Shown in pieces: positions 1-4,752 of a stretch of DNA of 32,294 nt. The first letter of the stretch is position 1, and each line of letters opens with the position of its first letter. Source of the DNA: Fidelibacterota bacterium. Its GTDB lineage: Bacteria; Fidelibacterota; UBA2242. A program made the translations under genes and the position numbers. Location of the stretch: NCBI GenBank assembly GCA_028719225.1, contig JAQUKI010000004.1, positions 1-32,294 on the forward strand, in the 5' to 3' direction. The notes below the pieces were generated by a model that saw nothing but the letters and a program-made list of their open reading frames with translations, was not told the origin of the DNA and searched no databases.

Positions 1-918
1 CAATCAATCATCAATTCATTTAAAGAAAACGGGCACGAAGTCGTCGGCTTCGAAGGCGATGATGCTGTAATGCGGCGTCTGGATAAAGCCAGACCACAAA
101 TCGTCTTTAATGTTGCCGAAGGTTTGTTCGGAGACTTGCGTGAGTCTTATGTTCCGTTGATGTGCGAGCGGTTAGGTTTACCGTATACGGGTTCTGACCC
201 GCTGACACTTGCAATTTGTCTGAATAAAGCCCGTTCCAAAGAAATTTTAAGTTATTACGGTGTTTCGAATCCACGGTTCCAAATGATTTTTCCCGGTCGG
301 GAAATACCGGAAACCGGAATTTCTTTTCCGTCTATCGTCAAGCCGATTTCGGAAGGAAGCAGTAAAGGCATTTTTAACAATTCTGTCGTCAAAGATTCCG
401 AATCGTTGAAACGAATTGTGCAGGAAAACTTCGATAAATATTGGCAACCAGTGATCGTTGAGGAATTTTTACCGGGGCTAGAATTTACTGCAGCTCTCTG
501 GGGAAACGGTACGGACGTCGAAGTTCTACCGATTATCTCGATGAATTTTTCTCAGTTGCCGAAAGAAGCACAACCGATCTATTCCTACGAAGCGAAATGG
601 GTGTGGGATACGACCGAAAAACCGCTGGATATTTTTGAATGTCCGGCGAAGATTTCTGCCGAATTGAGGACGTCGATCGAAAAAACGGTCAAGCGCGCTT
701 ATCAGGTTCTGAACATCCGCGATTGGTGTCGGATCGACGTGCGTTTAGATGCGAATGGCATTCCGAATATACTCGAGTTGAATCCACTTCCGGGAATTTT
801 GCCCGATCCGCGTGAGAATTCCTGTTTTCCAAAAGCCGCGAGAACCGCAGGCTATTCATATTCGCAAATGCTTAACCGAGTCTTAGACATATCCGCCGCG
901 AGGTGCGGCCTCCGATAA
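1..918 (+). CDS. D-alanine-D-alanine ligase-like ATP-grasp protein, 5' truncated by the window edge
   Basis: The reading frame is open from base 1 upstream of the listed ATG at 70 (QSIINSFKENGHEVVGFEGDDAVMRRLDK...). ATP-grasp/Ddl-like signatures: FNVAEGLFGD, PYTGSDPLTLAICLNK, SIVKPISEGSSKGI, RIDVRLDANGIPNILELNPLPG. Confidence 0.85.
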   Translation, partial: QSIINSFKENGHEVVGFEGDDAVMRRLDKARPQIVFNVAEGLFGDLRESYVPLMCERLGLPYTGSDPLTLAICLNKARSKEILSYYGVSNPRFQMIFPGREIPETGISFPSIVKPISEGSSKGIFNNSVVKDSESLKRIVQENFDKYWQPVIVEEFLPGLEFTAALWGNGTDVEVLPIISMNFSQLPKEAQPIYSYEAKWVWDTTEKPLDIFECPAKISAELRTSIEKTVKRAYQVLNIRDWCRIDVRLDANGIPNILELNPLPGILPDPRENSCFPKAARTAGYSYSQMLNRVLDISAARCGLR

Positions 919-1940
919 TGACTGCCGAAGAAAACCAACGAAGAAAAGTCGCAGTCGTCTATAATTCTTTCGATGACGTCTCTAATCCGGAGAACGTCGA
1001 ATTTTTGTCCGAAGCGGGCGTTAAAGAAGAAGCGGACGCCGTTTCCCAGTCGCTGGATCGGCTCGGTTATAAACTTCTCGTTCTGCCGTTGAAAAACCTG
1101 ACTTCGGATATTCAATCGATCGTGTCGTTTCAACCCGATGTTATTTTTAACCTGTGCGAGGGATTTCGCGGAAACACCCAGCAGGAAATGTTCGTCGCCG
1201 GAATCTGGGAACTTCTGAATATTCCGTATACCGGGAATTCGGCGCTAACAATTGGAACCGCTCAAAATAAAGTTTTAACCAAACAAATGCTTCGGTCGAA
1301 TGGTCTGACGACTCCCGATTACGAAACATTTCCCAAAGTTCCTCCTGCGACACAACTGCAATTTCCGCTGATTGCCAAACCGTCGAGAGAAGACGGAAGC
1401 ATCGGAATCGGACGGGATGCAGTTATTCGCAATTTGGATGAATTGAAGACCTCGGTCGATCGGTTGTTACAACGATATCATCAGGAAATTTTAGTCGAAC
1501 AGTACATTGATGGACGTGAATTTGCCGTCGGAATTCTGGAAAACGGATCGCCGACAGCGTTACCGCCATCGGAAATCTTGTTCGATGCGCTTGATGTCGA
1601 TCTGCCACACATTGCAAGCTATGATGCCAAGTGGTACGAAGACGACCCGATTTATCAAAAGACACCTTCTATCTGTCCGACGACGCTGGATTTTGCCACG
1701 CAAACTCGATTGCAGTCGTTAGCGCTCCGCGTATATGAATTACTGGGCGGAAGCGGTTACGGGCGAGTCGATTTCCGGATGGATGCGCTTGGCGAAATTT
1801 ACATTCTTGAATATAATCCGAATCCCGATATCTCTCCCACGGCGGGATATACTAAAGCGTTGAAAGCCGCGGGGATTACATATGATGAATTCGTGACGAC
1901 ACAGATCGACACGGCAATAAAAAGAAAGGATCATGATTAA
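918..1940 (+). CDS. Second D-alanine-D-alanine ligase-like ATP-grasp protein
   Basis: Ddl-like motifs: FNLCEGFRGNTQQEMFVAGIWELLNIPYTGNSALT, IAKPSREDGSIGI, VEQYIDGREFAVGIL, GRVDFRMDALGEIYILEYNPNPDISP. ATG at 918 overlaps the previous stop (TAATG); the ORF table's GTG start at 903 is less likely. Confidence 0.85.
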   Translation: MTAEENQRRKVAVVYNSFDDVSNPENVEFLSEAGVKEEADAVSQSLDRLGYKLLVLPLKNLTSDIQSIVSFQPDVIFNLCEGFRGNTQQEMFVAGIWELLNIPYTGNSALTIGTAQNKVLTKQMLRSNGLTTPDYETFPKVPPATQLQFPLIAKPSREDGSIGIGRDAVIRNLDELKTSVDRLLQRYHQEILVEQYIDGREFAVGILENGSPTALPPSEILFDALDVDLPHIASYDAKWYEDDPIYQKTPSICPTTLDFATQTRLQSLALRVYELLGGSGYGRVDFRMDALGEIYILEYNPNPDISPTAGYTKALKAAGITYDEFVTTQIDTAIKRKDHD

Positions 1941-2427
1941 CATTCGTTCAATTAAACCGGAAGACCGGTCGGTTCTCCTTCACATAATCGAGCAAACCAA
2001 CATGTTTTCTCCGGCGGAGGTGGATGTGGCGATGGAACTCATCGACGTCTGCCTGAATCAAAAAGAACAAAAAGATTACACAATTAACGTGGCAACCGAC
2101 GAAACGGATTCTATCGTCGGTTACGTATGCTATGGACCAACCCCGGCAACGATTGGGACCTTCGATCTTTACTGGATCGTTGTCGATGTTGTTTGCCAAA
2201 ATCAGGGAATCGGCAAACAATTACTTCAATTTGTCGAATGTGAGGTTTCACAAAAAGTCGGCAGATTGATCGTTATTGAGACATCCTCGGTCGAAAAATA
2301 TTTACCGACCCGGGGATTTTATTTACGAAACGGTTACACGATTGCCGCACAGATCAAGGATTTTTACCGTGAGGGTGACGACCGTGTTATTTTTGTCAAA
2401 TATTTTAAACCTAAAGAGAAAGAGTAG
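1933..2427 (+). CDS. GNAT family N-acetyltransferase
   Basis: GNAT acetyl-CoA loop-like VVCQNQGIGKQLLQFVE, and FYLRNGYTIAAQIKDFY near the C-terminus; overlaps the end of the upstream ATP-grasp gene. Confidence 0.85.
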   Translation: MINIRSIKPEDRSVLLHIIEQTNMFSPAEVDVAMELIDVCLNQKEQKDYTINVATDETDSIVGYVCYGPTPATIGTFDLYWIVVDVVCQNQGIGKQLLQFVECEVSQKVGRLIVIETSSVEKYLPTRGFYLRNGYTIAAQIKDFYREGDDRVIFVKYFKPKEKE

Positions 2428-2441
2428 GAGTCGAACCAGCC

Positions 2442-3488
2442 ATGGAGCAGTGGCAGAAAATATTAAAGAAAAGTCTGACAACCGTCGAAGAAATCTCGGA
2501 AAGATTTAACATTCCGATCGAAGAATTAAAAGGATTGGATAAGGTATTCGATATCAAAATCAATCCGTATTATTTATCGCTGATCAAAGAGAAAGGCGAT
2601 CCGATTTATAAACAGGTCATTCCCGATTTAGCGGAACTCCAACAGGATAAATTATTTTCCGATCCGCTCTGCGAGGAAAAGGATTCTCCCGTTCCCAGCA
2701 TCGTTCATCGCTATCCTGACAGATGCCTGTTTTTAGTTTCGCATGACTGCGCCTCTTATTGCCGGTTTTGTACCCGGAAGCGGAAAGTCGGCGACCCGAC
2801 CAAGATAAGCCTGAAATTCATCGATCAGGGAATTAAGTACATCGCCAGCCATCCGGAAATCCGGGACGTTATCATTTCGGGCGGTGATCCCTTGCTTCTC
2901 AGCGACAAGCAGATCGAAAGTATCTTATCGAGACTTCGTAAGATTAAACACCTTGAGATTCTCCGGATTGGCACACGCGTTCCGTGTTACCTGCCGCAGA
3001 GAATCACAAGTAGACTCGTCAAGATGCTGAAGAAATATCATCCGCTTTATATGAACGTACATTTTAATCATCCGGACGAACTGACACCGATCGCTGTGAA
3101 AGCGTTGGGACGACTCGCCGACGCAGGAATTCCACTAGGCGATCAGACTGTTCTGCTCAAAGGCGTTAATGATGATCCTGTGGTAATGAAAAAACTGATG
3201 CAGAAGTTATTAGCCGCCCGCGTCAAACCTTACTATATTTATCAGACCGATATGGTTTATGGAACGGAACACTTCCGGACCAGCGTCGAAAAAGGATTAG
3301 AAATCATCAAATCGATCCGCGGCTGGACATCCGGCATGGCTGTCCCGCAATTCGTTATCGATGCGCCCGGCGGCGGCGGAAAGATTCCACTTCTTCCCGA
3401 ATATCTGCAGGAAATCAACGAAAATGAAGTCGTCCTGAAGAATTATGAAGGAAAGATATTCCACTACAGACAACCGACAGTAAAATAA
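2442..3488 (+). CDS. KamA/lysine 2,3-aminomutase-like radical SAM protein, short form (348 aa)
   Basis: Radical SAM CxxxCxxC (CASYCRFCTRKRKVG), ISGGDPLLLSD, YYIYQTDMVYGTEHFRT, VIDAPGGGGKIPLLP typical of the KamA family. Confidence 0.88.
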   Translation: MEQWQKILKKSLTTVEEISERFNIPIEELKGLDKVFDIKINPYYLSLIKEKGDPIYKQVIPDLAELQQDKLFSDPLCEEKDSPVPSIVHRYPDRCLFLVSHDCASYCRFCTRKRKVGDPTKISLKFIDQGIKYIASHPEIRDVIISGGDPLLLSDKQIESILSRLRKIKHLEILRIGTRVPCYLPQRITSRLVKMLKKYHPLYMNVHFNHPDELTPIAVKALGRLADAGIPLGDQTVLLKGVNDDPVVMKKLMQKLLAARVKPYYIYQTDMVYGTEHFRTSVEKGLEIIKSIRGWTSGMAVPQFVIDAPGGGGKIPLLPEYLQEINENEVVLKNYEGKIFHYRQPTVK

Positions 3489-3510: not shown

Positions 3511-3556
3511 AAAATAAGCGGTTTCATAAAAAAGGAGCCGCTTATTTTCGTCTTTT
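3511..3556 (+). terminator. Rho-independent terminator after the kamA-like gene
   Basis: Perfect 11-bp inverted repeat AAAATAAGCGG (3511-3521) / CCGCTTATTTT (3538-3548) followed by T-rich CGTCTTTT. Confidence 0.8.
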
Positions 3557-3648: not shown

Positions 3649-4752
3649 ATGGAAAAAAAGGAGTCGGATATGCCTTTACTGGAAGTTTGCCTTCTTGATG
3701 ATTCGCCGATCAACGGTTTTCTCGGATTAGTGTTGAAAAAACCGGATGCTGTCGTCTGGCTTCGTACACCACGACAAAAAAACATTGCCAAACAAATCGA
3801 AACGGCTGTCGCAACTTACACTACACCCACATTCGAAACACGCGAAATACTCAGCGACGATGTCGATTCCTTTATTAAACTTTGCCAAGGCATATTCAAT
3901 GATTATCCCGAACACGAGATTTTACTCAATGTTACTGGCGGCGATCGCCTGCAGGCGATTTTAGCGACTGATATTTTCCGAAAAGCCAACAAAAAGGTCT
4001 TTTACATCGATACACATCATTCCAAGATTGTGAATATCGGTCTGGGCGAATCGAAATATTACCAGATCGCATTGACCGTGAACGAGTATATTGCGCTACA
4101 GGGAATTAAGATGACATCCGGAATTCGCTTCGATCCGGAGATCGGCAAGAGAAGCCCATTGACTTATTTCATTGCGGTCAACATGGATAATGTGATGCCG
4201 TTTATTGATAAAATCCGCGATGAATGGATTAAAATGGGTAATGTCAAACAGAATGCAAATTGGGATTACGACGATGGAAGGATAAAATTCCTGATCGACT
4301 ATGAGGCGGAACATGACCGGATGAAATTCAAATTCGGCGGCAGTGTCAGCCAGAAAATAATTGAGGTTTTCACAAATCCTGATGAATATCTGCTGAACGG
4401 AGGTTGGCTCCGCGAAATGGTATTTCTCCGTGTACATAAAAGCCAATATGATGACGTCCGCCTGGATGTACGGCTCGATAAAGAATCTCTTCCCGAAGGA
4501 TATAAAAACGAAAACCTGATCGATATCGCGTTGATGAAGGGAAGTTCGCTATATATTTTCCAGTGTTTTTCCTATCCAATCACGCATGATTCGTTCACGG
4601 AATTGAAAGCGTTTCAGCAAACGACCAAACTTCTGAATGCTAAAGGATTTGTCTTCGTTTCACATAAAATATATCACGGCTTCATCGAGCGGGCACGGGA
4701 ACTCGGTGTGAGCGTTGTCGTCGGGCGAAGAGTTCCAATTTTTTCATTATGA
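3649..4752 (+). CDS. Card1/Can2-like (DUF1887-type) protein: N-terminal CARF-like domain, C-terminal PD-(D/E)XK nuclease-like domain
   Basis: CARF-like ILLNVTGGDRLQAILATDIFRKANKKVFYID; C-terminal GGWLREMVFLRVHK ... NENLIDIALMKGSSLYIFQCFS resembling the GxWLE ... NEiDvl...LyiIECK pattern of DUF1887/Card1 proteins. Confidence 0.7.
   Translation: MEKKESDMPLLEVCLLDDSPINGFLGLVLKKPDAVVWLRTPRQKNIAKQIETAVATYTTPTFETREILSDDVDSFIKLCQGIFNDYPEHEILLNVTGGDRLQAILATDIFRKANKKVFYIDTHHSKIVNIGLGESKYYQIALTVNEYIALQGIKMTSGIRFDPEIGKRSPLTYFIAVNMDNVMPFIDKIRDEWIKMGNVKQNANWDYDDGRIKFLIDYEAEHDRMKFKFGGSVSQKIIEVFTNPDEYLLNGGWLREMVFLRVHKSQYDDVRLDVRLDKESLPEGYKNENLIDIALMKGSSLYIFQCFSYPITHDSFTELKAFQQTTKLLNAKGFVFVSHKIYHGFIERARELGVSVVVGRRVPIFSL

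What the first reader, a model, noticed from the sequence alone, without database searches (positions are those of the whole stretch)
1..3488. Compact operon of two ATP-grasp ligases, a GNAT and a KamA-type aminomutase: candidate pathway for a beta-amino-acid-containing small molecule
Seen: four plus-strand genes with overlapping or near-overlapping ends (TAATG at 916-920; GNAT start at 1933 inside the previous gene; 14-bp gap before the kamA-like gene) and a terminator after the fourth. Established: KamA-family enzymes move an alpha-amino group to the beta position; in methanogenic archaea KamA (AblA) plus a GNAT (AblB) make the osmolyte N-epsilon-acetyl-beta-lysine; Ddl-like ATP-grasp enzymes join amino acids through acyl-phosphates. 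Inference: this operon could make an acetylated beta-amino acid and ligate it, possibly twice, into a di- or tripeptide, osmolyte or cell-wall/lipid modification. The paired ligases and small GNAT do not match classical abl or a normal peptidoglycan operon.
Basis: partly seen in the sequence, partly recalled or inferred. Interest (0 to 1): 0.72.

Follow-up and report, generated by a model that had tools for sequence, protein, structure and literature searches.

The report
Conserved beta-lysine ligase gene cassette
Four adjacent genes that probably convert lysine to beta-lysine and then acetylate it and join it to other small molecules form an apparently undescribed cassette, kept together in bacteria of at least four phyla; what it makes is not yet known.

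Summary
In detail: bases 1-3488 carry four tightly packed plus-strand genes (two Ddl-like ATP-grasp ligases, a small GNAT, a KamA-type radical SAM aminomutase), followed by a hairpin. The first gene is cut by the contig edge; its missing start lies on another contig of the same genome, and the join agrees with a sister genome. The set is not chance: the order ddl1-ddl2-GNAT-kamA occurs in 25 further loci (Marinimicrobia, Calditrichota, KSB1, Lentisphaerota and relatives), and a rearranged order, kamA-ddl1-ddl2-GNAT, in 14 more. ddl2 and GNAT are fused in five loci. Ligase trees give both orders one origin, apart from true D-Ala-D-Ala ligases; this genome has its own Ddl elsewhere. KamA keeps all lysine-binding residues but lacks the zinc site and C-terminus of AblA and is outside the AblA clade; AblB is absent. 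Some loci add a GNAT-deacetylase fusion, and six carry a sigma-54-type promoter. Best reading: an undescribed biosynthetic cassette that turns lysine into beta-lysine and builds an N-acetylated, amide-linked beta-lysine metabolite. Product and role (osmolyte, signal or other) are inferred only. No description turned up in an open-access full-text search.

The parts
1..918 (+). ddl1: Ddl-like ATP-grasp ligase, first of the pair; its first 44 codons lie on contig C45 (L002 305-174, minus strand)
   Evidence: ddl1 clade
918..1940 (+). ddl2: Ddl-like ATP-grasp ligase, second of the pair; fused to the GNAT in five other loci
1933..2427 (+). GNAT N-acetyltransferase of the 2R7H type; 8-nt overlap with ddl2; one copy per genome in all 14 genomes tested
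2442..3488 (+). KamA-type radical SAM aminomutase, lysine 2,3-aminomutase-like, short form without the C-terminal zinc-binding extension
3511..3548 (+). hairpin after kamA, probable terminator that closes the operon

Best explanation
The four genes are one biosynthetic cassette for a small intracellular metabolite that contains beta-lysine. Proposed route: KamA moves the alpha-amino group of L-lysine to the beta position, giving beta-lysine (inferred from conserved residues). The two Ddl-like ATP-grasp ligases activate carboxylates as acyl-phosphates and form two amide bonds with partners still unknown. The GNAT, which works in step with ddl2 (gene fusion), acetylates a free amine of a precursor or of the product. 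Where present, a GNAT-deacetylase fusion related to acetylpolyamine amidohydrolase removes the acetyl group, for turnover or deprotection. Shown: conservation, order, co-inheritance, ddl2-GNAT fusion, common origin of the two orders, intact catalytic residues, non-Ddl substrate site. Inferred: every substrate, the order of steps, and the role. An osmolyte is the likeliest role, because three relatives carry the abl osmolyte genes directly downstream on the same strand; a signal or a metallophore is possible.
For: Four-gene set in 25 further loci of order A and 14 of order B. Pairwise distances of the four proteins correlate over 16 loci (rho 0.41-0.82; at most 7 of 2000 permutations as high). 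ddl2-GNAT fusions in L057, L202, L204, L205, L208. Ligase tree: ddl1 of orders A and B one clade (86), ddl2 one clade (96), true Ddl a separate clade (100). KamA R134, D293, D330, K337 of 2A5H and the CxxxCxxC cysteines kept in 50 of 50. ATP-grasp residues kept in all cassette ligases bar one E270D; H63 to E in 99 of 99. GNAT-deacetylase fusion beside cassettes of both orders, 53-63% identical; nearest structures acetylpolyamine amidohydrolases. kamA2-ablB directly downstream of the cassette in L062-L064. Sigma-54-type sites upstream of ddl1 in 6 of 16 order-A loci, 0.18 expected.
Against: No product, substrate or expression data. Cassette KamA is outside the AblA clade and below the AblA equivalog cut-off (469 against 525 bits), so another substrate is not excluded. 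Spirochaete and some Lentisphaerota loci have ddl2-GNAT without an adjacent kamA or ddl1, so that pair can serve without local beta-lysine supply. The deacetylase is absent from this genome. The N-terminal substrate-anchoring glutamate aligns ambiguously.
Confidence: 0.58

Rival explanations
1. The cassette makes a beta-amino-acid peptide natural product or metallophore rather than an osmolyte, as clusters that pair a KamA with an ATP-grasp ligase do.
For: Thioflavicoccus plasmid: diaminobutyrate transaminase, SbnA and ornithine-cyclodeaminase-like genes, ATP-grasp, then a KamA on the opposite strand; its KamA groups with order-B KamA. The Kitasatospora bls cluster has blsG with an ATP-dependent carboxylate-amine ligase. 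A Rhizobium plasmid has ATP-grasp next to KamA.
Against: No exporter, resistance gene or siderophore receptor recurs beside the cassette (by gene-family clustering; many flanking genes were not named). Co-inheritance of the four genes over deep divergence is less usual for specialised metabolites.
Confidence: 0.2
2. The cassette modifies the cell wall or an envelope polymer: the ligases make an unusual amino-acid unit with beta-lysine that is then acetylated.
For: Both ligases belong to the Ddl superfamily.
Against: No further gene family recurs beside it across phyla except regulator, deacetylase and abl genes; the genome has its own Ddl; the Ddl second-substrate site is changed.
Confidence: 0.1
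3. KamA belongs to lysine catabolism and the other genes are bystanders.
For: KamA-type enzymes start lysine fermentation (established knowledge).
Against: No lysine 5,6-aminomutase alpha subunit was found in the four close genomes, though the control rang nowhere, so this is weak. The four genes stay linked across phyla. KamA groups with neither fermenter enzymes nor AblA.
Confidence: 0.04
4. [quoted passage not shown]
For: KamA plus GNAT is the abl logic; AblB is absent here; abl genes lie directly downstream of the cassette in three relatives.
Against: The GNAT is fused or paired with ddl2, not with kamA, and persists without an adjacent kamA in nine loci.
Confidence: 0.12

Closest known systems
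abl operon (AblA lysine 2,3-aminomutase + AblB acetyltransferase), N-epsilon-acetyl-beta-lysine osmolyte
   Same: KamA-family enzyme with conserved lysine-binding residues plus a GNAT in one operon
   Different: no AblB homologue, KamA outside the AblA clade and without the zinc site and C-terminal extension, and two added ATP-grasp ligases
N-acetylglutaminylglutamine amide (NAGGN) osmolyte pathway
   Same: acetyltransferase and ATP-grasp ligase functions fused in one protein making an N-acetylated dipeptide osmolyte (fusion from own knowledge; dipeptide osmolyte in PMC1224877)
   Different: different ATP-grasp and GNAT families as far as known, no asparagine-synthetase-like gene seen beside the cassette, and KamA present
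Blasticidin S-type clusters (blsG arginine 2,3-aminomutase plus ATP-grasp ligase)
   Same: KamA-family enzyme whose beta-amino acid is joined by an ATP-grasp ligase (own knowledge; gene neighbours seen)
   Different: cassette KamA scores best as lysine type (469 against 346 bits for arginine); no nucleoside genes
D-alanine--D-alanine ligase (Ddl)
   Same: fold family and ATP-grasp catalytic residues
   Different: below the Ddl cut-offs, separate clades, H63 to E, Y216 to W in most, L282 changed
PDB 2R7H, putative D-alanine N-acetyltransferase of the GNAT family (Desulfovibrio; source organism from memory)
   Same: same GNAT family, E 5e-38, shared CYGPTPAT.GT.DLYWI and ETS..KY.PTR motifs
   Different: its genome neighbourhood could not be examined here; its function is a depositor's guess

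Membership tests
abl operon (N-epsilon-acetyl-beta-lysine) | AblA above the TIGR03820 cut-off (525.4 bits) | tested here: not met
   469 bits; outside AblA clades
abl operon (N-epsilon-acetyl-beta-lysine) | AblB (TIGR03827) in the genome | tested here: not met
   no match in G000, G001, G005, G006; control genomes rang; G000 is only 90% complete
KamA-family radical SAM aminomutase | TIGR00238 above cut-off and CxxxCxxC cluster motif | tested here: met
   303.6 bits against 199.2; C103, C107, C110 in 50 of 50
Lysine 2,3-aminomutase activity | R134, D293, D330, K337 of 2A5H | tested here: met
   R112, D270, D307, K314 aligned and invariant in 50 of 50; activity itself not testable here
Lysine 2,3-aminomutase (clostridial type) | zinc site: C268 and the C-terminal cysteines | tested here: not met
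   C268 is D245 here; protein ends before the extension
D-alanine--D-alanine ligase | score above NF002378 (243) and TIGR01205 (245.65) | tested here: not met
   ddl1 172 and 134, ddl2 148 and 143 bits (ddl1 scored without its first 44 residues); the genome's own Ddl 328 and 300
D-alanine--D-alanine ligase | D-Ala second-site residues H63, Y216, S281-L282 | tested here: not met
   H63 is E in 99 of 99, Y216 is W in ddl1A and all ddl2, L282 changed in all cassette ligases with a letter there
ATP-grasp ligase (active) | K97, K144, E180, E187, R255, D257, E270, N272 of DdlB | tested here: met
   kept in 99 of 99 except one E270D
NAGGN synthesis pathway | curated NAGGN-family model matches (GNAT/ATP-grasp synthetase, amidotransferase) | tested here: inconclusive
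   no NAGGN model among the matches listed for the cassette proteins (list truncated at 25 for the two ligases); the rest of the genome was not searched for it

The most novel reading that the evidence does not exclude
An undescribed class of intracellular N-acetylated beta-lysine di- or tripeptide, made by a dedicated two-ligase cassette and turned over by a GNAT-deacetylase fusion in some lineages, serves as a stress solute or signal across several anaerobe-rich phyla.
Probability: 0.3. Interest if true: 0.78.

Novelty: new variant of a known kind. Interest (0 to 1): 0.6.

Why it matters
If the reading holds, a broad set of mostly uncultured bacteria (Marinimicrobia, Calditrichota, KSB1, Lentisphaerota and relatives) shares a metabolite class that no current annotation names: the ligases are labelled D-alanine--D-alanine ligase and the aminomutase KamA family. 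The cassette turns a vague annotation into a direct test (express four genes, look for beta-lysine amides). It would also link beta-amino acid chemistry, ATP-grasp peptide ligation and an HDAC-type deacetylase in one bacterial pathway.

Tried and rejected
Ordinary Ddl: rejected by scores, tree and active site. Classical abl: rejected. EF-P beta-lysylation (EpmB): rejected, 231 bits against 369. Glutamate or arginine aminomutase: not supported (423 against 650, 346 against 600 bits). Phage-borne cassette: no relatives in viral contigs. Plasmid collections gave only distant analogues. The Card1-like gene after the hairpin as part of the operon: rejected, it follows only in close relatives. The 640-731-aa ATP-grasp proteins in relatives are a different group, not cassette members. 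Ten literature searches found no description of the cassette. Structure prediction was not used: the sequence matches to solved Ddl, 2A5H and 2R7H already fixed the folds.

Full report
What is there. Pfam and NCBIfam give two D-Ala-D-Ala-ligase-like ATP-grasp proteins, a GNAT and a KamA-family radical SAM protein. A 15-pair hairpin follows at 3511-3548; the terminator pattern alone is not above its shuffle expectation. The window is the whole contig C4 of a 2.56-Mb, 90%-complete genome, whose close relatives are titled Marinimicrobia. The first gene is cut at base 1. Contig C45 overlaps bases 1-173 with four mismatches and supplies the first 44 codons. The join is supported by the sister genome G001, which has the same genes on both sides of it.

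Conservation. A scan of one genome per species with ddl2 gave 25 loci. Fourteen of these carry ddl1-ddl2-GNAT-kamA in the same order on one strand, two more carry ddl2-GNAT-kamA, and nine, mostly Spirochaetota, have only ddl2 and GNAT. Adding the sister genome and loci from Calditrichota (5 of 40 genomes with a ddl1 match) and from the phylum of L051 (34 of 388 sampled) brings order A to 25 loci besides the window, with a second order, kamA-ddl1-ddl2-GNAT, in 14. Of 20 loci fetched, 18 have kamA beside ddl1; one exception is cut by its contig end, and in the other the genome keeps ddl2-GNAT-kamA on another contig. ddl2 and GNAT are one open frame in L057, L202, L204, L205 and L208. The GNAT had exactly one match per genome in all 14 genomes tested.

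Common origin. In a tree of 107 ligases, ddl1 of both orders forms one group (support 86), ddl2 of both orders plus the Spirochaetota copies another (96), and true Ddl a third (100). The two gene orders therefore most likely descend from one ancestral ligase pair. Protein distances of the four genes correlate over 16 order-A loci, as expected for a unit inherited together. KamA of order A forms one clade (99) and that of order B another (95), both apart from AblA. Trees were quick searches with SH-aLRT support only.

The enzymes. KamA aligns over 342 residues with lysine 2,3-aminomutase 2A5H. Residues that by the published structure (own knowledge) bind lysine and PLP (R134, D293, D330, K337) are present, and they are invariant in 50 of 50 KamA sequences. 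The zinc ligand C268 is aspartate here, and the C-terminal extension is missing. The ligases keep the ATP-grasp catalytic residues but differ from Ddl at H63 (E in 99 of 99), Y216 (W in ddl1A and all ddl2) and L282. The genome's own Ddl lies on contig C224 and scores above the Ddl cut-offs, which the window's ligases do not reach. The GNAT's only strong solved relative is 2R7H, named by its depositors a putative D-alanine N-acetyltransferase.

Extra partners. A GNAT-deacetylase fusion (PF00850) sits in or directly after the cassette in L033, L039, L044 (order A) and L065, L075, L207 (order B), and about 2 kb after kamA in L196; its nearest solved structures are acetylpolyamine amidohydrolases. 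It is absent from this genome. In L062-L064 a second, full-length kamA and an ablB-family gene directly follow the cassette on the same strand; kamA2 was scored in L062 and ablB in L064, both above their curated cut-offs. In six order-A loci a sigma-54-type promoter (TGGCAYRATNNTTG) lies upstream of ddl1, against 0.18 loci expected, five of them next to a GAFTGA-bearing response regulator. The window's own lineage lacks both.

Mechanism. The cheapest account is a pathway in which KamA supplies beta-lysine, two ATP-grasp ligases build amide bonds, and the GNAT acetylates an amine in step with ddl2. The deacetylase, where present, reverses the acetylation. Only the genomic facts are shown; substrates, order of steps and role are inference. 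[quoted passage not shown] Natural-product clusters that pair a KamA with an ATP-grasp ligase show the rival.

Verdict. The enzyme families are known; the conserved combination has not been described in the open-access papers searched, a search that misses most subscription journals. It is best called a new variant of a known kind.

Noticed in passing
window 3649-4752, plus strand: Card1/Csx1-like CARF nuclease (CARF_Card1 and Card1_endonuc above cut-off; PADLOC CARF4-PDDEXK) directly after the cassette's hairpin; it also follows the cassette in the three close relatives. No check was made for CRISPR arrays or type III genes.
   Followed up: partly
G000 contigs C45 and C4: The two contigs overlap by 173 bases with 4 mismatches inside ddl1, probably one locus split by strain variation.
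   Followed up: yes
L034, L039, L040, L044: A 300-330-aa protein with ATP-grasp-like motifs but no Pfam match lies near the cassette, beside a GAFTGA response regulator and, in two loci, a histidine kinase.
   Followed up: partly
L104, L109, L113, L116, L117: Proteins of about 640-680 aa in relatives end in a Ddl-like ATP-grasp domain (LLEVNPNPGWCWDGHLAKM) behind an unidentified N-terminal half; a separate group from the cassette ligases.
   Followed up: no
L088 (Thioflavicoccus mobilis plasmid pTHIMO01): Diaminobutyrate transaminase, SbnA, ornithine-cyclodeaminase-like gene and ATP-grasp, with a KamA on the opposite strand; looks like a diamino-acid peptide cluster.
   Followed up: partly
L141 (Rhizobium sp. 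NLR16a plasmid p4): Glutamate dehydrogenase-like gene, hypothetical protein, ATP-grasp and KamA in a row; similar KamA hits on many rhizobial plasmids.
   Followed up: no
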